A stretch of DNA of 64,000 bases from Cytophagales bacterium CG12_big_fil_rev_8_21_14_0_65_40_12 (GTDB lineage: Bacteria > Bacteroidota > Bacteroidia > Cytophagales > Cyclobacteriaceae): the NCBI GenBank assembly GCA_002786855.1, contig PCUU01000065.1:62001-126000 (forward strand), written 5' to 3'. Below are positions 20,159 through 51,414 of the stretch, one piece after another. The notes beneath the pieces were generated by a model. It did no database searches. It had not been told where the DNA came from and saw nothing but the letters and a program-made list of their open reading frames with translations. A program made the translations under genes and the position numbers. Each line of letters begins with the position of its first letter. Positions within the stretch are counted from its first letter, which is position 1.

Positions 20159-21412
20159 ATGAGGAGAATACACGCTGGGTTTGCGATTTTAATAGCCGTC
20201 TCTTTTACCACAGGATGCTCTATGTTTAAGGGTTTTCTTGGAGGTGGAGGCATGAGTAAGGTGGAAAAGCTTAACGCTGAAGGCCAACTAATGGGAGTTC
20301 CCGACAGGGAGGGATGGTACCAAGAAACGCCCTTTGGTATGGTACAAATTCCGGGAAACACATTTTTCATGGGCCAAGCCGATGAAGATGTTGCCGCCTC
20401 TCAAATCAACTTCAATAGACAGATCACAGTCAGTTCATTTTTAATGGACTCAGAAGAAATCACTAATAATGAGTATCGCCAGTTTCTTAATTTTATCGAT
20501 ACCATTTCCCAAGATCCAAACGAGCAATATTGGACCCAACAAGTGAAGCAGGAAGTTACTCCAAACCCAAATGTTTGGGACAGCGAGTTTGCCTATCATA
20601 TGGGTGATAAAATGACACAATACTACTTCAGTCACCAAGCATTTGATGACTATCCCGTGGTAGGCGTCAGTTGGGAATCTGCTGCAAAATTTACCGAGTG
20701 GAGAACTGAGCATCTCAACATTGGTCGTCAAGAAGATGAAACTGGTGGTGGAGGTGGTCTTTTTGGAGGTAAAAAGAAAAGACAAGCCCAAGACAATGGC
20801 GTTCAAGGCTTAGGTGGCCCAGGTCAATTGGGTGCTGCTCCTCAGGGTGTTCAAGGACAGCCTAACCAGCCAAACACAACTTTTAAGAGTACTTTACCTA
20901 TCGAAAAAAGATATCCCAATTTTAGATTGCCAACCGAAGCTGAATGGGAATATGCAGCCCGAGGTGGACGCGAAATCATAAAATACCCATGGGGTGGCCC
21001 TTATACCAGAAACAGACAAGGTTGTTTTTTAGCCAACTTTAAACCTGGTAGAGGCAATTATAGTGATGATGGTTATCCTTATACTGCCCCTGTTAACGCT
21101 TTTTTACCTAACAATTTCAACCTATACAATATGGCGGGTAATGTTGCTGAGTGGTGTCTAGACGACTTTTCTCCAATTTACAATCCATTGGTTTGGGATT
21201 TGAACCCTGTGTTCTTATACAAAGACAATGAAAGAAACAACCCAAATTATGGCAAAAAAGTAGTCAGAGGTGGCGCTTGGAATGATATTTCTTATTACCT
21301 GCAAACTGGAACACGCACATACGAATATAGAGATGTCGAATCTGCTAGCATCGGGTTTAGATGTGCGATGGACTATTTAGGAAGCGCGGGTGACGATTTT
21401 GGAACCAACTAA
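20159..21412 (+). CDS. gldK: GldK/PorK, T9SS lipoprotein
   Basis: Lipoprotein that forms the periplasmic ring of the type IX system with GldN under the outer membrane. A lipoprotein signal ends at Cys20 (SFTTGC). The rest is a formylglycine-generating-enzyme-like (SUMF1) fold, with FRLPTEAEWEYAARGG and YNMAGNVAEWCLDD as its marks; GldK is not known to have enzyme activity. Between about residues 194 and 240 there is a low-complexity Gly/Gln/Pro-rich insert with a KKKR patch inside the SUMF1 domain. gldL follows 31 bases later. Confidence 0.96.
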   Translation: MRRIHAGFAILIAVSFTTGCSMFKGFLGGGGMSKVEKLNAEGQLMGVPDREGWYQETPFGMVQIPGNTFFMGQADEDVAASQINFNRQITVSSFLMDSEEITNNEYRQFLNFIDTISQDPNEQYWTQQVKQEVTPNPNVWDSEFAYHMGDKMTQYYFSHQAFDDYPVVGVSWESAAKFTEWRTEHLNIGRQEDETGGGGGLFGGKKKRQAQDNGVQGLGGPGQLGAAPQGVQGQPNQPNTTFKSTLPIEKRYPNFRLPTEAEWEYAARGGREIIKYPWGGPYTRNRQGCFLANFKPGRGNYSDDGYPYTAPVNAFLPNNFNLYNMAGNVAEWCLDDFSPIYNPLVWDLNPVFLYKDNERNNPNYGKKVVRGGAWNDISYYLQTGTRTYEYRDVESASIGFRCAMDYLGSAGDDFGTN

Positions 21413-44833: not shown

Positions 44834-46183
44834 TTATTCCTCCATCTCTTTTAGCATTCTGTAAATGGTGGATTGACCAATGTCCAATTTCTGAGCTACA
44901 AGCTTAATATCGTCATCGTAGTTTTTGAGGTAGAGCTTCACAATGCGTTGATTATATTCCTTCAAACTCATTTCTTCGCCCGACATTTCGGAGATTACGT
45001 CTCGTGTTCCGAAGGTAATGTCATCGGGCAGAATGGTTTCACCCTCGGCCATTACTACGGCCAATTCTACCACTGATTTAAGTTCTCTGATATTTCCGGG
45101 ATAGGCATATCCGAGCAGCTTTTTACTGGCCTCGGAACTAAGTGCTTTGGTAGCCAACCCATTTTCTTTGCAAAAAGCGGCAATAAAATGCTTGGCCAAC
45201 ATCAATACATCTTTTCCTCTTTCTCGTAATGGAGGCAATTGGATGATGATACCAAACAAACGGTAGTACAAATCTTCTCTAAAATTTCCGGCCTTTACTT
45301 CTTCCAGCAAATCGCGATGAGTGGCTGCCACAATACGACAATTGATTTTGACGGTTTCCTTTCCGCCAACCCGAGTAATTTCCTTTTCTTGAAGCACTCT
45401 GAGTATTTTGGCTTGAAGGGTCTTGTCCATTTCACCCATTTCATCCAAAAACAAAGTGCCTCCATCGGCTTGTTCAAACTTTCCCAAATGTCGATTAGCA
45501 GCTCCGGTAAAGGCTCCTTTTTCATGACCAAAGAGTTCGCTCTCTGCCAACTCTTTAGGAATCGCGCTCATATTCACTGCAACAAACGGATGATTCTTTC
45601 TATCAGAATTATAATGTACGGCTTTGGCCACTAGCTCCTTGCCAGTTCCTGTTTCGCCATAAACAATTACTGATATATTGGTCGTAGTTGCCTTTTTTAT
45701 CAAGTGAAAAACCTTTTTCAGCGGTTCACTTTGGCCTATAATTGAGTTTTGAAAGTCATACTTTTGTTCAACCTCAGAAAGTAAAACCTCGATTCTCTTT
45801 TCTAAATAAGACTTGTCTCGGATGTGCTTGATGACATTATGAAGCCTGTCCTTAATGTCCTTGGTTTTTGAAATATAGTCGTAAGCACCAATTTTTAGCA
45901 AACCCACAGCGGTATCGATTTCGCTCTGTTCAGAAATGATAATCACTTTTATTTCAGGCACTTGCTCCCTTATTTTTAAGAGCAGTTCTTCCCCATTGAA
46001 ATCTGGCAGTCGATAATCCAGTGTTATGACTTTCGGCTTTTCCTTCAGTGCGGCCAGTAACGACTCTCCGTTTTCAAAGGACTTTACTTTAAAATCAGGG
46101 TTGAGTTCTAACGTATAAACCAGCAGTTTGCGGTACCATTCGTCATCTTCAACTACAAAAATGGAAAAAGAAGCTTCGTTCAT
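44834..46183 (-). CDS. sigma-54-dependent response regulator (NtrC/AtoC family)
   Basis: Activates RNA polymerase carrying sigma-54 when phosphorylated. Domains in order: receiver (residues 5-120; phosphorylatable Asp56 in VITLDYRLPDFNG), AAA+ (about 140-375; Walker A GETGTGKE, the sigma-54 contact loop GAFTGA, Walker B GGTLFLDEMGEM) and a Fis-type helix-turn-helix (about 410-449, VAQKLDIGQSTIYRMLKEM). Complete at 449 residues. ATG 46183 is chosen over TTG 46189, which belongs to the -7 element. No histidine kinase is adjacent; the hybrid kinase 1 kb upstream is a possible but unproven partner. Likely target: the -24/-12 promoter at 44699. Confidence 0.94.
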   Translation of the reverse strand: MNEASFSIFVVEDDEWYRKLLVYTLELNPDFKVKSFENGESLLAALKEKPKVITLDYRLPDFNGEELLLKIREQVPEIKVIIISEQSEIDTAVGLLKIGAYDYISKTKDIKDRLHNVIKHIRDKSYLEKRIEVLLSEVEQKYDFQNSIIGQSEPLKKVFHLIKKATTTNISVIVYGETGTGKELVAKAVHYNSDRKNHPFVAVNMSAIPKELAESELFGHEKGAFTGAANRHLGKFEQADGGTLFLDEMGEMDKTLQAKILRVLQEKEITRVGGKETVKINCRIVAATHRDLLEEVKAGNFREDLYYRLFGIIIQLPPLRERGKDVLMLAKHFIAAFCKENGLATKALSSEASKKLLGYAYPGNIRELKSVVELAVVMAEGETILPDDITFGTRDVISEMSGEEMSLKEYNQRIVKLYLKNYDDDIKLVAQKLDIGQSTIYRMLKEMEE

Positions 46184-46186
46184 AAT

Positions 46187-46194
46187 CAAATCTA
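46187..46194 (-). promoter_or_regulatory. -7 promoter element abutting the sigma-54 activator gene
   Basis: TAGATTTG on the minus strand is an exact TAnnTTTG match and ends three bases before ATG 46183, so translation would start at or almost at the RNA 5' end. No good -33 TTG was found at normal spacing. Confidence 0.5.
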
Positions 46195-46760: not shown

Positions 46761-47156
46761 TCAAAAACCCTTTGCCGTTACTTTTATCTCTCCAGTTCCA
46801 TTGCAATTCGGACACTTTACATAAGCTGATTTTCCCGAACCATCACAGTAGTAGCAACTAACGATCATAAAATCTCGCCCTCTGGTAATTTTATTGGGCT
46901 GTATTGGCGTTTCATTGGTTTCTAATTTTGTATTTGCCTGCTTGATCTTGATTAATTTGAGCCTTTTTCTTTCCTTGGCGTTTGCCAGATTAATCATCAT
47001 AGATGGCAACTCCATGAACTCCGGATGCGCCTTTACCAACTCCAGAATATTGTCATAAATGCTTTTTGAATTGTTCTTGAGGTTTCGAACCATCCATTTT
47101 CGTCCGAATTCTAAGTATTCTGCTTCAAGGTGGTTGATGCTATGTATTTTTGCCAT
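46761..47156 (-). CDS. small protein with one DnaJ-type CxxCxGxG zinc module
   Basis: A 131-residue protein of unknown function. The N-terminal 70 residues are helical and basic (FGRKWMVRNLKNNSKSIYDN). Near the C-terminus, CYYCDGSGKSAYVKC...CNGTG gives two CxxCxGxG-type cysteine pairs (CYYCDGSG and CPNCNGTG), as in the cysteine-rich region of DnaJ, enough for a single zinc site where DnaJ has two. There is no J domain, so it is not a DnaJ. It lies 92 bases after the hybrid-kinase operon and could be its last gene. Confidence 0.7.
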   Translation of the reverse strand: MAKIHSINHLEAEYLEFGRKWMVRNLKNNSKSIYDNILELVKAHPEFMELPSMMINLANAKERKRLKLIKIKQANTKLETNETPIQPNKITRGRDFMIVSCYYCDGSGKSAYVKCPNCNGTGEIKVTAKGF

Positions 47157-47248: not shown

Positions 47249-49117
47249 CTACAAATATTCCTTAAGTTGCCCCAAAGCTAAGATCGCTTGCTTTTTGAAA
47301 GTGTAAAAGGGTTTTAAAATAGCCGTGTTTGACATCTCGTTTTCAAGCATTTTGTGCAATTCTTCACGCTGAAAACTCAACGTGGTAATGCCTAAATAAT
47401 CGATGCTTGGCCTGATTTTGTGTAAAATCTTCTTAGCAGAGGCCTGCTCGTTCATTTCAAGAGCAGAAGTAAGGGATGCTAACTCCTGTGGTAGTGTTTC
47501 GTAAATTGTTTTCAGTAATTCACCCAAAAAGACTTTGTCTCCTCCCACTGTGCGTTCGAGTAAACTCAAATCAATTTTTAAATCTGATGTTTCGACACTT
47601 AACAGCATTATTTTCTCGCACAACAAAGCCAAGTCGATCGGCTTTTGGATCCACTGCCAATTTTCGGTTGTTTTCAGCGTTGAATATTTCTCGCTAGAAT
47701 CTCCACTAATGAACAGAAAGGGCGTTGAAATGCCCATTTCTCTACTGCTTTTTAGTATGTCTATTCCCGAACTGTCACCTAATTGAACGTCCGAAATAAC
47801 GAGGTCAAAAGCGCCAGAGTTAAGGCTGTCCTTCAGAGCCCTTCCTGTCCGCACCAGTTCGAGATCAACCGACTGGCTTCTCAAAAACTCTTTCAAAATG
47901 GCCTGATTGACAGGATCATCCTCGGCCAATAGAATTTTAAGTCCATTGATTTTCGGTTGAACCTCAATCGGCCGATGCTCCAAATGACCTAAAGTAAAAC
48001 TCAATTCAAAGGTCATTGCTGTGCCTACACCCAATTCACTTTTAATTTCAAGCTGTCCGCCAAAGGCTTCAACCAGTTTTATGGCGATTCCCAAGCCTAA
48101 GCCCGTTCCGCCAAATTCTCTTGCGGTTGAGTCCTGCGCTTGGGCGTATGGCTCAAGCACTTTGCTCATTTGTGCTGGAGTCATTCCCATTCCAGAGTCG
48201 GTAAGGCTGAAGAGCAATTTTACTTGGCCTCTATTCGATTCGGTAACTGCAATTTGTAATGCTACTTTCCCTTTTTTTGTAAACTTAAAGCTGTTGCCAA
48301 CCAAGTTATATAATATCTGTTTTAAGCGAGTAGGATCACTTTTTAACACAATCGGTTCCGTAGGTAGTTCAAGCTCCAATTGCGTTTCTCTTTGCTGTGC
48401 CTCAAATTGAAATCCAGAAATCACATTCGAAACCTCGTCCTGGAGTGAGAAATCAATAGATTCGAAAGTGAGTTTGCCGGCCTCTATTTTCGAAATATCA
48501 AGAATATCATTGACGATTGAATTGAGGTGCAAAGAGGTAGATCTAATGGCAGGCAAATAGGTGGTCAATTTCTGTTCATTCGCTTCTATAAGACTCACCA
48601 AACCTGCAATACTGCTTAAAGGAGTACGCATTTCATGGCTCACCTGCGCAAAAAACTCATTTTTGAAGTCTTGAATTCTTTTCAATTCTAGGTTTTGGAA
48701 TTCGAGTAGCTGGTTTTCCATATCAGCTACCCTCTTTTGTAATAGGGCTACTTCTTCATTGATGGCGCTTTCATTTCGGCTTTGTTGAATACCTAGCAGA
48801 CGGTCGTAATCGGCTGTTTTATCAAAAATAACCCACTGAATTCTGTCTTCTGTAATCTTTCGAAATGTTAGGTTAAAGAGTGCGTTTACAGGTTCTGTCC
48901 ATACCACTTCGGGGAAATCATGAACCTCGTTCTCTTGCATATTGACGAAAACTTCCGCCAGACTTTCTAAAAAAATGAACTGATCAAATACTTTGGTGTC
49001 TGGCTCAATTTTGAACAGGGTATCGCAACTCTCAATTAAAATTCCTTCGGTATCAAAAATTACAACTTGAATTTTCGAGGCCACCTCTTGGAGTTTTATT
49101 TGATCTAAGTGATTCAT
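47249..49117 (-). CDS. hybrid sensor histidine kinase with receiver and Hpt domains
   Basis: Cytoplasmic phosphorelay protein with no membrane helix. Order: a PAS-like input domain (residues 1-105), a coiled-coil linker, HisKA (His161 in FFAQVSHEMRTPL), HATPase (NLVGNSFKFTKKG, TDSGMGM, GGTGLGLGI), a receiver (391-505; Asp443 in LVISDVQLGDSSG) and a C-terminal Hpt-like domain (about 525-622; His566 in ILHKIRPSIDYLG). It can in principle run a full His-Asp-His relay, but the output regulator is not fused. Its ATG overlaps the GTPase stop (ATGA), so the kinase is translationally coupled to the small GTPase upstream, which suggests the GTPase feeds into the kinase or the reverse. Confidence 0.92.
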   Translation of the reverse strand: MNHLDQIKLQEVASKIQVVIFDTEGILIESCDTLFKIEPDTKVFDQFIFLESLAEVFVNMQENEVHDFPEVVWTEPVNALFNLTFRKITEDRIQWVIFDKTADYDRLLGIQQSRNESAINEEVALLQKRVADMENQLLEFQNLELKRIQDFKNEFFAQVSHEMRTPLSSIAGLVSLIEANEQKLTTYLPAIRSTSLHLNSIVNDILDISKIEAGKLTFESIDFSLQDEVSNVISGFQFEAQQRETQLELELPTEPIVLKSDPTRLKQILYNLVGNSFKFTKKGKVALQIAVTESNRGQVKLLFSLTDSGMGMTPAQMSKVLEPYAQAQDSTAREFGGTGLGLGIAIKLVEAFGGQLEIKSELGVGTAMTFELSFTLGHLEHRPIEVQPKINGLKILLAEDDPVNQAILKEFLRSQSVDLELVRTGRALKDSLNSGAFDLVISDVQLGDSSGIDILKSSREMGISTPFLFISGDSSEKYSTLKTTENWQWIQKPIDLALLCEKIMLLSVETSDLKIDLSLLERTVGGDKVFLGELLKTIYETLPQELASLTSALEMNEQASAKKILHKIRPSIDYLGITTLSFQREELHKMLENEMSNTAILKPFYTFKKQAILALGQLKEYL

Positions 49118-49593
49118 GCCATCATCGCTTTGGTCAATCGTAGAAAGGCTTCTTCTACGTATTCGCCAGTTTTGGCACTTGTGGTCCTGATCTCTAAAGA
49201 CAATCCACTCAAAATTTGCTTTGTCTCCTCTTCGGTCAAGAGGTCTTTTTTATTCGCCAATACTTCTATCGGAACTCCAGGTAATAACTCTTTGATGTAA
49301 TCTAGTTGTTCATGCAAGTTGTTGTAGGTGGATGGTCTGGATAGGTCGAAAACGTATAGCACTCCGTGTGCCCCTAATTGGTAACTTTTGGGCACTTTGC
49401 TCTGGGCCGTTTCACCGGCAATGTCCCAAATCAATAGGTTGACCTTTAACCCATCTACATCAACCTCTTTCTTATCGATTTTTACGCCTATGGTAGTGAG
49501 GTAAGCCTCCGAAAATTTGCTATGGACAAACTGCTGCACCAAAGAGGTTTTTCCGACTCCGAAATGGCCAACGAGGATTACTTTTTTATTCAT
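49114..49593 (-). CDS. Rab/Ras-like small GTPase
   Basis: A single-domain small GTPase of 159 residues. P-loop GHFGVGKTS (residues 9-17), switch I threonines TTIG (33-36), G3 WDIAGE (56-61), G4 NKKD (114-117) and G5 TSAK (138-141) are all present. The catalytic Gln of Ras (WDTAGQ) is Glu61 here, so intrinsic hydrolysis may be low or partner-dependent. There is no C-terminal cysteine for prenylation. ATG 49593 is the start: it overlaps the end of the upstream gene by eight bases, and the 24 residues of the longer frame match nothing. It lies between a longin/roadblock-like partner and a hybrid kinase in one operon. Confidence 0.9.
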   Translation of the reverse strand: MNKKVILVGHFGVGKTSLVQQFVHSKFSEAYLTTIGVKIDKKEVDVDGLKVNLLIWDIAGETAQSKVPKSYQLGAHGVLYVFDLSRPSTYNNLHEQLDYIKELLPGVPIEVLANKKDLLTEEETKQILSGLSLEIRTTSAKTGEYVEEAFLRLTKAMMA

Positions 49594-50422
49594 CCTTATC
49601 GAAGTTTTCGAAGTACTTTGCCAAACCTTCGGCAATTTCATTTTGGGCATCGGACTCGGCACCATGCTTTGCCCTTTTCAATACTTTTTGAGCAAAATCC
49701 AAGAGCGTGTCATCTAGCTTATCGCGAAATTGGGCATTCATACCCCCTGATGTAACCACCGCTACGAAGAAGGATTTGAAATTTTTGATGGTGATTTTAA
49801 AGTTGTCGTAATCAATGTTAGAAAGTTCTTGCGTTTCACCAGTAAAGGCATCTTCTACAAAAGCCTTGATGGCAGTAAGCATTCCCGCTACCATGTCACG
49901 ATCTAAAGCTGCGCTTTTGGAAAAACTTCCTAGAAGCATACCCGAATTTCTTTCGATCACATAGATTTCTTCAATCTTAGGTTCAATCAGCTTTGAGATG
50001 ATCATGTCTTTCTGAGGTGTGCCAGAGATCCACGCCTTGATCCGGATCTTCCAACCTTCCCACGAAAAAGCCAATTCCATTTGGTGATCAATCCGCTCGG
50101 AAAGCTTTTCCATTTCATTGGTAATGTACTTTTTGATCATTCTGCCTATGATCGGGTAAAGCACCTCCACCACTTCGTCTTGCGACTCTCTGATCTGCTT
50201 GCTGATGGATTCTGTAATTTGAGGACCGAATAGTTCGGGGAATTTGTTTTTGAGATTGACGCGTTCATCAGCTAAAATAGGCTGAATTTTCTCCTCAAGC
50301 CTGTTTCTAGAGTTGATTTGATCGTCTAAATCCTCGAGTTTTTGGGCAAGTTGATCTCTCTCCTCCCAGTCTTTCTCCAGGAGGATTTCCCTCAATTTAT
50401 CAAATCCCAGCCCTTTGTTCAT
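49586..50422 (-). CDS. GTPase-module partner protein (coiled coil + roadblock/longin-like)
   Basis: A 278-residue soluble protein with no named function known to me. Residues 1-60 are coiled coil; 60-140 contain a helical segment (VEVLYPIIGRMIKKYITNEMEKL) followed by WKIRIKAWISGTP; residues about 150-235 have the pattern of a roadblock/longin-type fold (IEEIYVIERNSGMLLGSF, DMVAGMLTAIKAFVEDAF, FFVAVVTSG). This arrangement resembles the N-terminal region of some OmpA-family proteins in cyanobacteria and proteobacteria that also neighbour small GTPases, but without the OmpA domain (from memory, not searched). Such folds often bind or regulate small GTPases, and the GTPase gene overlaps its end. 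Confidence 0.7.
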   Translation of the reverse strand: MNKGLGFDKLREILLEKDWEERDQLAQKLEDLDDQINSRNRLEEKIQPILADERVNLKNKFPELFGPQITESISKQIRESQDEVVEVLYPIIGRMIKKYITNEMEKLSERIDHQMELAFSWEGWKIRIKAWISGTPQKDMIISKLIEPKIEEIYVIERNSGMLLGSFSKSAALDRDMVAGMLTAIKAFVEDAFTGETQELSNIDYDNFKITIKNFKSFFVAVVTSGGMNAQFRDKLDDTLLDFAQKVLKRAKHGAESDAQNEIAEGLAKYFENFDKDE

Positions 50423-50431
50423 GGGTTATTG

Positions 50432-50782
50432 TTATTCCGCTATTTGTTTGCCCATTTCTTGAAGCAAAGCGCCAAGCATTTTTCGGTTCACTTTTTTATG
50501 ATCAAGGTCGGTTACTGCTTCGTCCATATCGGCCCTTAGCTGAGTTACCTTCTTGTTCATGTCGGCCCTCAAGTCGTTGATGATGTTGTTGAGCTGATCG
50601 CGAGTATCGTTCAGTTCATTTTCAATTTCCAATCTAGTGCGCTTTATTAGTGCTTTGATTTCATTGAATTCAGCATCGTATTGCTGCATGCTTTCACCAA
50701 AAATGAGTTGTTTAACTGCGTCAATTTTCGGGTCGCCTGAAGAAACCATTGTTTTCTTCTCTTCTTCTTTTTCCTTAGCCAT
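50432..50782 (-). CDS. coiled-coil protein of the GTPase operon
   Basis: A 116-residue, highly charged protein that is almost all helix: residues 35-95 show heptads (IKALIKRTRLEIENELNDTR, DLRADMNKKVTQLRADMDEA), ending in a short conserved-looking tail RKMLGALLQEMGKQIAE. It has no signal peptide or membrane helix. It lies nine bases before the roadblock-like gene and two bases after the PG-binding gene, so it belongs to the same transcript. Scaffold or regulator of the GTPase module is the natural guess; nothing in the sequence proves it. Confidence 0.7.
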   Translation of the reverse strand: MAKEKEEEKKTMVSSGDPKIDAVKQLIFGESMQQYDAEFNEIKALIKRTRLEIENELNDTRDQLNNIINDLRADMNKKVTQLRADMDEAVTDLDHKKVNRKMLGALLQEMGKQIAE

Positions 50783-50784
50783 GT

Positions 50785-51414
50785 TTATTGAATTAAAGCT
50801 TTGAGTGTTTTTTTATCGACTATTCCAGAAGGGAACAGCCCTTTACTTTGTTGAAATGCTTTTAATCTGTTGGTGGTAATTAAGTTGAAAATGCCGTCTT
50901 GCGGAATGCTATCCGCAGAAGTATTCAACATTTTTTGAAGCTCCCAAACCGCACTGCCAGAATCTCCTCTTTGCAGTCCTATTAAATAATCATGCTTAGC
51001 ATATTCGAGGTCTTCAAGGGTGAGTCCTTGCTCAAAAAATAACCTTACTTTTTCATTGGTATATCCTTGGGATTTTAGGCTTGCTGATTTTTCCAGTTTA
51101 CTTTGGAGCATGAGCGCTGTCGCCCTCAGCAATTCGTAATATTCGGTGGCTTGGCTCGATTCAAAGTTTTCTTTCTCCATAAATCGAACGTCTATTTTTT
51201 GATTTCGCCACAGTGACCTGGCATAGCTGCCGACTTCCATGGCGGTTTTGTAATAGGTTTTGAGCACCAAAGTGTCATAGAACTCAGTATCGATTTTCTC
51301 GCTAATTGGAAAATCATAATCCGATGGAGGATTGAACCTTCGGTCCTTTAAATACTGAACAGAAACATAGGCTATAATGCCAATGATTATTGCAAAGGTG
51401 AGTAATCGCTTCAT
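50785..51414 (-). CDS. membrane-anchored protein with C-terminal peptidoglycan-binding domain
   Basis: First gene of the GTPase operon. An uncleaved N-terminal helix (about residues 4-19) anchors a 209-residue protein whose C-terminal 65 residues match the PG_binding_1 fold (GLQRGDSGSAVWELQKMLN, DGIFNLITTNRLKAFQQSKGL, IVDKKTLKALI). The middle part (40-135) is helical and unrecognised. It could link the cytoplasmic GTPase/kinase module to the cell wall. A clear hairpin lies upstream and ends the preceding gene, so transcription of the operon starts between 51415 and 51575. Confidence 0.72.
   Translation of the reverse strand: MKRLLTFAIIIGIIAYVSVQYLKDRRFNPPSDYDFPISEKIDTEFYDTLVLKTYYKTAMEVGSYARSLWRNQKIDVRFMEKENFESSQATEYYELLRATALMLQSKLEKSASLKSQGYTNEKVRLFFEQGLTLEDLEYAKHDYLIGLQRGDSGSAVWELQKMLNTSADSIPQDGIFNLITTNRLKAFQQSKGLFPSGIVDKKTLKALIQ

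What the first reader, a model, noticed from the sequence alone, without database searches (positions are those of the whole stretch)
47249..51414. Compact operon joining a Rab-like GTPase, a roadblock/longin-like partner, a coiled-coil protein, a wall-binding membrane protein and a hybrid phosphorelay kinase
Five genes are packed with gaps or overlaps of 2, 9, -8 and -4 bases, so they are made together. Seen in sequence: a complete small GTPase domain, a partner with coiled coil plus a roadblock/longin-like segment, a membrane protein with a peptidoglycan-binding domain, and a soluble kinase carrying PAS-like, HisKA, HATPase, receiver and Hpt-like domains. Known: roadblock/longin proteins regulate small GTPases (MglA/MglB). 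Inferred: this is a signalling unit in which GTPase state and a His-Asp relay are coupled, perhaps reporting on the wall or on gliding polarity. I know of no described system with this exact gene set.
Basis: partly seen in the sequence, partly recalled or inferred. Interest (0 to 1): 0.78.

Follow-up and report, generated by a model that had tools for sequence, protein, structure and literature searches.

The report
Wall-anchored Rab-like GTPase signalling operon
A bacterium carries a conserved five-gene unit in which a Rab-like molecular switch, probably tied to the cell wall by partner proteins, seems to control a plug-in signalling protein; the general kind was described from genomes in 2014 but I found no experiment on it, and this form differs in its parts and points to an amino acid that may complete the switch.

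Summary
In detail: five minus-strand genes, 51414 to 47249, gaps 2, 9, -8, -4. It is a real unit: 23 of 26 loci in the same family hold all five genes on one strand, and GTPase and 278-residue protein occur in the same 26 of 196 genomes. It is not a new kind: it matches the computationally described 'Group 1 Rup' systems (PMC4316618). It is a variant: the partner domain, fused to a membrane helix and OmpA elsewhere (8 of 8 scanned, one 0.2 bits under the cut-off), is split from a separate wall-binding protein; the output is a hybrid phosphorelay kinase, LytTR in some relatives. New leads: the partner core looks roadblock/longin-like by weak profile scores, AlphaFold being uninformative; and a linker glutamine of the output (residue 112) is present in 38 of 38 GTPase-linked outputs but absent in 6 of 6 related proteins from near-complete genomes without the GTPase, whereas the GTPase lacks its own catalytic glutamine (35 of 35). 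Best reading: a wall-anchored G-protein switch gating a swappable output. Gliding is unsupported. Mechanism is inferred.

The parts
50785..51414 (-). PGB209: N-terminal TM helix, middle helical part, C-terminal PG_binding_1 domain (residues 152-207); inner-membrane placement inferred
   Evidence: E 1.1e-11; alignment of 24 relatives; the fragment of L039 left out; TM; relatives in the same 26 genomes, in G058 as two pieces on two contigs, plus G119
50432..50782 (-). CC116: coiled-coil protein without TM, with a conserved N-terminal stretch around 'KIDAVKQLIFG'
   Evidence: (F28, G29 invariant in 25); 39 and 53 (HMM relatives next to OmpA-fused partners, incl. Nostoc, Rhizobium, Mesorhizobium)
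49586..50422 (-). P278: relative of the 'unknown domain' protein of Group 1 Rup systems; N-terminal coiled coil, conserved helical middle, core (about residues 140-258) roadblock/longin-like by weak profile scores
49114..49593 (-). Rup-type (Rab/Ras-like) small GTPase, 159 aa; G3 motif WDIAGE lacks the catalytic Gln
48683..49117 (-). NT: N-terminal input domain of the output protein, shared with LytTR outputs; Q17 and linker motif Q112-x-R-N115
47249..48682 (-). Hybrid phosphorelay part of the output: HisKA, HATPase_c, receiver, Hpt-like (Hpt below cut-off)

Best explanation
A Group 1 Rup-type signalling module, in a split Bacteroidota form. SHOWN by sequence: one co-inherited, tightly packed gene block; a Rab-like GTPase without its own catalytic Gln; a partner protein (P278) homologous to the N-terminal, pre-TM part of OmpA proteins; a separate TM wall-binding protein (PGB209) where other groups have the OmpA part; an output protein whose N-terminal domain (NT) is common to kinase and LytTR outputs. 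INFERRED: P278, with a roadblock/longin-like core, holds the GTPase at the inner membrane together with CC116 and PGB209 and probably sets its nucleotide state (GEF or platform) according to wall or envelope state; GTPase-GTP binds NT; the linker glutamine Q112, just before the coiled coil leading to the kinase core, completes the GTPase active site or binding site, so that the output is effector and timer at once; here the kinase passes phosphate His-Asp-His to an unidentified response regulator. The GTPase is taken to be upstream of the output, because the output domain is exchanged while NT stays.
For: Co-inheritance: P278 (E <= 0.001) and GTPase (E <= 1e-25, a threshold I chose) in the same 26 of 196 genomes; all five genes on one strand in 23 of 26 loci (17 in the window's order, 6 in the order GTPase-output-CC-P278-PGB; the other 3 are a contig end, PGB on other contigs, and CC not detected); GTPase next to output in 25 of 25. 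Flanking genes change between same-genus relatives while the block stays (L034/L035 against L032/L033). Homology of P278 to the N-terminal part of OmpA proteins (OmpA in 8 of 8 scanned of 12, 7 over the cut-off; Mesorhizobium annotated OmpA family - Rab family GTPase - cyclase-domain protein). Split (26) and fused (12) loci fall on two sides of one branch, 99/94. Exchangeable outputs on one NT: hybrid HK, PAS-HK, HK-REC, LytTR; outside the class sigma-54 activators, HKs and a cyclase-domain protein next to the GTPase. G3 Gln missing in 35 of 35. Q112 present in 38 of 38 GTPase-linked outputs (33 by alignment; 5 by eye), absent in 6 of 6 NT proteins of genomes (completeness 97-100%) without a family GTPase or P278; those 6 keep Q17. 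Roadblock-like core: hhalign P 2.8e-4, probability 41%, 100 colinear columns, above 200 of 200 column shuffles; longin families are the most frequent weak Pfam matches (12 and 5 of 42; next 3 of 42).
Against: No experiment; all mechanism is inference. The fold of P278 rests on sub-threshold scores: no significant Pfam or PDB match; a first hhalign against 15 roadblock rows gave only P 0.0076, probability 5%, and the whole P278 profile P 0.0013, probability 18%; the unrelated NT control scored 23.1 (P 0.0034) over 46 columns against 28.1; unrelated proteins match Fuz_longin_1 as well as P278 does and the window's own genome gave no match; AlphaFold and Foldseek were uninformative. The 6 orphan NT proteins are only two genera, and their whole linker has changed, so Q112 could be a contact or structural residue. 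NT homology to outputs of other classes is weak (P 0.0015 for one set, none for the other), so Q112 there is read from a short motif. Three OmpA-fused loci (L077, L078, L082, one genus) show no GTPase within the 15 kb fetched. One split P278 relative reaches a hydrophobicity maximum of 1.7, near the weakest PGB209 relatives.
Confidence: 0.55

Rival explanations
1. Conservon-like direction: the kinase is a sensor or regulator upstream and the GTPase is the output, with P278 acting as an MglB-like GAP.
For: Actinobacterial conservons join HK-like protein, roadblock protein, a further protein and GTPase, and PMC4316618 posits the GTPase as their output (passages and section 18; PMC13343842 abstract). 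The window kinase gene lies next to the GTPase gene.
Against: The kinase part is replaced by LytTR (Pfam in 2 of 2 scanned; the others by eye) while NT stays, and by sigma-54 activators or a cyclase-domain protein in other groups; such domains are end effectors. The receiver and Hpt-like domains make the window kinase a relay of its own. No PF03259 in the genome.
Confidence: 0.2
2. MglA/MglB-like polarity switch that positions gliding or envelope machinery; the kinase only adjusts it.
Against: GTPase profile's best PDB matches are Rab-type (57 of 60 shown so named); partner not recognised by PF03259; patchy distribution, 26 of 196 genomes of the family; outputs are transcriptional or enzymatic. 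GldJ search gave sub-cut-off matches in 52 of 52 genomes, so no test of gliding.
Confidence: 0.1
3. P278 is only a membrane-proximal scaffold with no effect on nucleotide state; the output alone regulates a constitutively loaded GTPase.
For: P278 fold assignment is weak; Q112 covariation concerns the output, not P278.
Against: P278 is found in the same genomes as the GTPase and its relatives are the part joined to TM and OmpA elsewhere; neither fact excludes a pure scaffold.
Confidence: 0.2
4. Unrelated genes that happen to be co-transcribed.
For: None found.
Against: The same genes together in 14 genera in two gene orders, and relatives of four of them together in Cyanobacteria and Alphaproteobacteria.
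Confidence: 0.01

Closest known systems
Group 1 Rup systems (Wuichet and Sogaard-Andersen 2014, PMC4316618; passages plus sections 16 and 18 seen)
   Same: Rab/Ras-like single-domain GTPase without G3 Gln; coiled-coil gene; conserved unknown-domain protein; signalling output with a glutamine-bearing N-terminal domain; Bacteroidetes and a Mesorhizobium member named in the paper; not coupled to MglB
   Different: Here TM and wall binding are on a separate protein with PG_binding_1 in place of OmpA; outputs are hybrid phosphorelay kinase or LytTR (the passages seen name DGC/PDE and HK; the supplement was not seen); unknown domain compared with roadblock/longin; a linker Gln that tracks the GTPase
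Actinobacterial conservons / AGPS (CvnA-D)
   Same: Operon of histidine kinase, roadblock-type protein, further protein and small GTPase
   Different: MglA-type GTPase, MglB-type CvnB and a membrane kinase according to the papers; here Rab-like GTPase, kinase without TM, no PF03259, wall-binding subunit
MglA/MglB
   Same: GTPase with a roadblock-related partner (inferred fold)
   Different: Partner not recognised by the MglB Pfam family; GTPase closest to Rab-type chains; relay kinase and wall protein in the unit
Eukaryotic longin-type Rab GEFs (MON1-CCZ1, HPS1-HPS4, FUZ-INTU; TRAPP; their GEF roles recalled)
   Same: Rab-like GTPase with a possibly longin-type partner; these longin families are the most frequent weak Pfam matches, and TRAPP BET5 the best, non-significant PDB match (E 0.34)
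   Different: Matches below every cut-off; bacterial, linked to wall and signalling output; homology not established

Membership tests
Group 1 Rup system | Small single-domain Ras-superfamily GTPase close to Rab/Ras/Ran/Rho | tested here: met
   159 aa; PF00071 E 2.7e-32; 57 of the 60 PDB matches shown (of 757) are named Rab, Sec4 or Ypt
Group 1 Rup system | No catalytic Gln in G3 | tested here: met
   WDIAGE in the window; 35 of 35 aligned GTPases without Gln
Group 1 Rup system | Neighbouring coiled-coil cytoplasmic protein | tested here: met
   CC116, no TM; HMM relatives beside OmpA-fused partners
Group 1 Rup system | Conserved unknown-domain protein | tested here: met
   P278 is homologous to the N-terminal part of OmpA proteins beside such GTPases
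Group 1 Rup system | That protein continues into TM and OmpA ('often' in the paper) | tested here: not met
   P278 ends after 278 residues without TM; a separate PG_binding_1 protein lies in the operon. Not decisive, since the paper says 'often'
Group 1 Rup system | Output protein with N-terminal domain bearing an invariant Gln | tested here: met
   Q112 in 38 of 38. Which Gln the paper's figure shows could not be seen
Group 1 Rup system | Position inside the paper's Group 1 clade | not tested
   The paper's sequences and supplement were not available
MglA/MglB | MglB partner of family PF03259 | tested here: not met
   No match for P278; 0 in the whole genome
Roadblock/longin superfamily (P278 core) | Significant similarity to the fold | tested here: inconclusive
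   hhalign P 2.8e-4, probability 41%, P 0.0076 with a smaller set; weak longin Pfam matches; structure prediction failed
Conservon / AGPS | MglB-type CvnB and membrane kinase CvnA | tested here: not met
   No PF03259; kinase without TM
PAS domain (NT) | Match to PAS profiles | tested here: not met
   No Pfam PAS match in 24 of 24 at E <= 1; hhalign to 5 PAS domains P 0.15

The most novel reading that the evidence does not exclude
A bacterial counterpart of a Rab GTPase with a longin-type regulator, anchored to the cell wall, in which the downstream effector itself supplies the catalytic glutamine in trans (Q112 in the linker to the output), so that GTP hydrolysis is the act of signalling; one input domain is plugged into histidine-kinase or LytTR outputs in this class and, by short-motif evidence, into sigma-54 and cyclase-domain outputs in other bacteria. 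If the longin relation is true homology, the Rab-longin pairing predates or is shared with eukaryotes.
Probability: 0.25. Interest if true: 0.88.

Novelty: new variant of a known kind. Interest (0 to 1): 0.6.

Why it matters
PMC4316618 states that no Rup member had been characterised by experiment in 2014, and none of the papers listed in my searches of the open-access library reports one since ([quoted passage not shown] This locus gives a compact operon that could be tested, and narrows the 2014 guess of a glutamine in trans to one residue in the output's linker that is absent where the GTPase is absent. It also suggests that the unknown partner is a roadblock/longin-type GTPase regulator, which would join bacterial wall sensing, two-component signalling and Rab-like switching in one machine.

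Tried and rejected
PDB sequence search with P278: best are coronavirus spike coiled coils (best E 0.0064), taken as coiled-coil attraction and rejected; with the core profile: best TRAPP BET5, E 0.34, not significant. NCBIfam 'VpdC' match of P278 (E 5e-4, 18 bits against a cut-off of 1000) rejected. Viral-contig scan with P278: none. GldJ as a gliding marker: matches in 52 of 52 genomes, none over the cut-off, uninformative. NtrC-type regulator 44834-46189 as part of the unit: found in the loci of 2 of 4 same-genus relatives only, so not counted as part. NT as a PAS domain: no support. Q17 as the trans glutamine: set aside, since it is E or D in 8 of the 10 distant outputs aligned (4 E, 4 D; the 2 cyclase-type ones have Q) and is kept in proteins of genomes without the GTPase.

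Rows dropped before counts: L044 has no output because its contig ends; L039 and L040 (broken outputs) are not in the NT alignment A5, and the PGB fragment of L039 not in A7; L077, L078 and L082 have no GTPase in the locus, so they are not in the 38; L124 and L125 are extra NT copies in G072, a genome that has the operon, so they are in neither the 38 nor the 6 (L124 keeps Q112, L125 has Y). The 38 are 26 of the class (24 aligned; L039, L040 by eye) and 12 others (9 aligned; L080, L083, L085 by eye; the reading frames of L083 and L085 were chosen by eye among overlapping ORFs). In the 6 (L119-L123 aligned, L128 by eye) the change in L122, L123 and L128 is loss or shortening of the linker. G119 (60% complete, has PGB209, GTPase not found) is left out of the 6; its NT keeps a Q-x-x-N motif and has no Gln at the place of Q17 by eye. 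The roadblock set is 31 rows from 30 loci, so at least one locus is in it twice. The Pfam scans compared used different limits, E <= 10 for the cores and E <= 1 for NT. The core alignment A8 holds 42 sequences, 26 split and 16 from outside the family.
Full report
OBSERVATION. The GTPase is taken to start at the ATG at 49593, which gives the Ras domain from residue 4 on and the 8-base overlap; a longer open frame exists. The genome is in the same genus as Roseivirga sp. E12, because the same-genus relative G192 has a contig of the same length as that record with the locus at the same place.

A REAL UNIT. A search of 196 genomes of the family found P278 in 26, from 14 of 84 genera. The GTPase family at E <= 1e-25 is in exactly those 26. 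PGB209 relatives (E <= 1e-10) are in 30: those 26 (in G058 as two pieces on two contigs, in G009 with a stop inside), G119 (60% complete), and three that match only the PG_binding part. NT is in 32: 25 of the 26 (not G155, whose contig ends there) and 7 more. Of 26 loci, 17 have all five genes in the window's order and 6 have all five as GTPase-output-CC-P278-PGB; the remaining three are a contig end (L044), PGB on other contigs (L046) and CC not detected by BLAST (L049). The detected genes are on one strand in 26 of 26; GTPase and output are neighbours in 25 of 25, with a 4-base overlap in 17. Some of these genes are broken or cut: the outputs of L039 and L040, the PGB of L039, the short output of L056. 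In two loci (L036, L043) about 2.1 kb lie between CC and P278.

WHAT P278 IS. A profile search of 395 genomes of the phylum found 14 with P278 relatives, two of them of the window's genus. One same-class genome has a stand-alone 283-aa protein (L073); the other 11 genomes (12 loci) carry the domain at the N-terminus of 589-636-aa proteins. Of 8 scanned, all 8 match OmpA at the C-terminus, 7 over the cut-off and L083 at 27.0 bits against 27.2; a hydrophobic segment follows the domain (maximum 1.88-2.64). Plasmid records add Nostoc, two Rhizobium and a Mesorhizobium at 21-31% identity; in the last the genes are annotated OmpA family protein, Rab family GTPase, adenylate/guanylate cyclase domain protein, with a CC relative upstream. 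This is the Group 1 Rup neighbourhood of PMC4316618. Three OmpA-fused loci of one genus (L077, L078, L082) show CC but no GTPase in the 15 kb fetched. In a tree of 38 GTPases the 12 from fused loci and the 26 from split loci are separated by one branch, 99/94, so one change between the two forms suffices for these loci.

FOLD OF P278. The core (residues about 140-258) against 15 PF03259 rows gave P 0.0076, probability 5%. Against 31 rows it aligned over 100 colinear columns, score 28.1, P 2.8e-4, probability 41%; 200 column shuffles gave mean 11.0, maximum 22.7; the reversed profile 13.2; the whole P278 profile P 0.0013, probability 18%; but the NT profile, as a control, gave 23.1 (P 0.0034) over 46 columns. 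Scanned one by one, 12 of 42 cores match Fuz_longin_1 and 5 of 42 Intu_longin_1 weakly (best E 0.0063 and 0.0033; the next family 3 of 42), while no family recurs among 24 NT sequences (stricter limit). In whole genomes Fuz_longin_1 gave 20 matches at E <= 10 in 52 genomes; 5 are P278, four of them in one genus, the window's own is not among them, and other proteins score as high. So roadblock/longin-like is likely, not shown. PMC3521125 (passages) treats longin and roadblock as related GTPase-binding domains.

THE OUTPUT AND ITS GLUTAMINE. The window kinase shares its first part (about 140 residues) with proteins of 7 loci that are not kinases: 6 show a different C-terminus, LytTR in the 2 scanned with Pfam, and the seventh (L056) is cut short. 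Q17, G25, Q112 and N115 are invariant in 24 NT sequences. The GTPase lacks its own catalytic glutamine in 35 of 35, and the 2014 paper noted that the output's invariant glutamine might matter for that. Q112, in a Q-x-x-N/R/Y motif of the linker, is present in 26 of 26 outputs seen in the class and 12 of 12 outputs next to the GTPase elsewhere (5 of these 38 by eye). Six NT proteins come from six genomes of 97-100% completeness, in two genera, with no family GTPase (only two weak partial matches, in G088 and G180, E 9e-5 and 5e-4, in 455-456-aa frames) and no P278; all six keep Q17 and none has Q112 (the sixth by eye). Distant outputs tend to the reverse: 8 of 10 aligned have E or D at Q17 and 9 of 9 alignable keep Q112. 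This favours Q112 as the residue tied to the GTPase, as catalyst or contact. Limits: two genera, a changed linker as a whole in the six, and weak homology of the distant NT regions.

CC116 AND P278 N-TERMINUS. They share a 21-column motif (P 2.6e-4); pairing of the two is a guess.

MECHANISM (inferred). Wall or envelope state reaches P278 through PGB209; P278 loads or holds the GTPase; GTPase-GTP engages NT; the linker Gln ends the signal by hydrolysis; the kinase relays phosphate to a regulator not identified. That the GTPase is upstream rests on the exchange of output domains.

NOVELTY. The system kind is known from genomes. New here, as far as the listings of my searches show (open-access library only; the 2014 supplement was not readable): the split PG_binding_1 form, LytTR and sigma-54 outputs, the roadblock/longin lead, and the covariation of Q112 with the GTPase. 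Papers: PMC4316618 passages and sections 16 and 18; PMC3521125 and PMC4915359 passages; PMC13343842 outline and abstract; all others search listings only.

Noticed in passing
L119 4188-5555, L120 3730-5097, L121 4572-5939, L122 4603-5868, L123 4846-6111, L128: Orphan NT proteins with a kinase-like middle and an Hpt-like end (by eye), in genomes without the GTPase; the two whose neighbours were listed (L119, L122) sit beside a response-regulator-like gene.
   Followed up: partly
L124, L125 (genome G072): Two extra NT copies outside the operon: one short with an in-frame stop reported by the search, one fused to a kinase without the linker Gln.
   Followed up: partly
window 44834-46189 (-): NtrC-type sigma-54 regulator with receiver domain downstream of the operon, kept nearby in two of four same-genus relatives; a possible but unproven receiver of the relay.
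   Followed up: partly
window 46761-47156 (-): 131-aa protein with a DnaJ-like CxxCxGxG zinc motif (weak Pfam match).
   Followed up: no
L039 and L040: Output genes of two draft genomes are broken into two frames; sequencing error or decay not decided.
   Followed up: no
L077, L078, L082: P278-OmpA fusions with CC but no GTPase within the 15 kb fetched, in one genus.
   Followed up: no
window about 20318-21205 (+): Protein with sub-cut-off match to the GldJ family model (contig 82318-83205), perhaps a formylglycine-enzyme-fold protein (label recalled).
   Followed up: no
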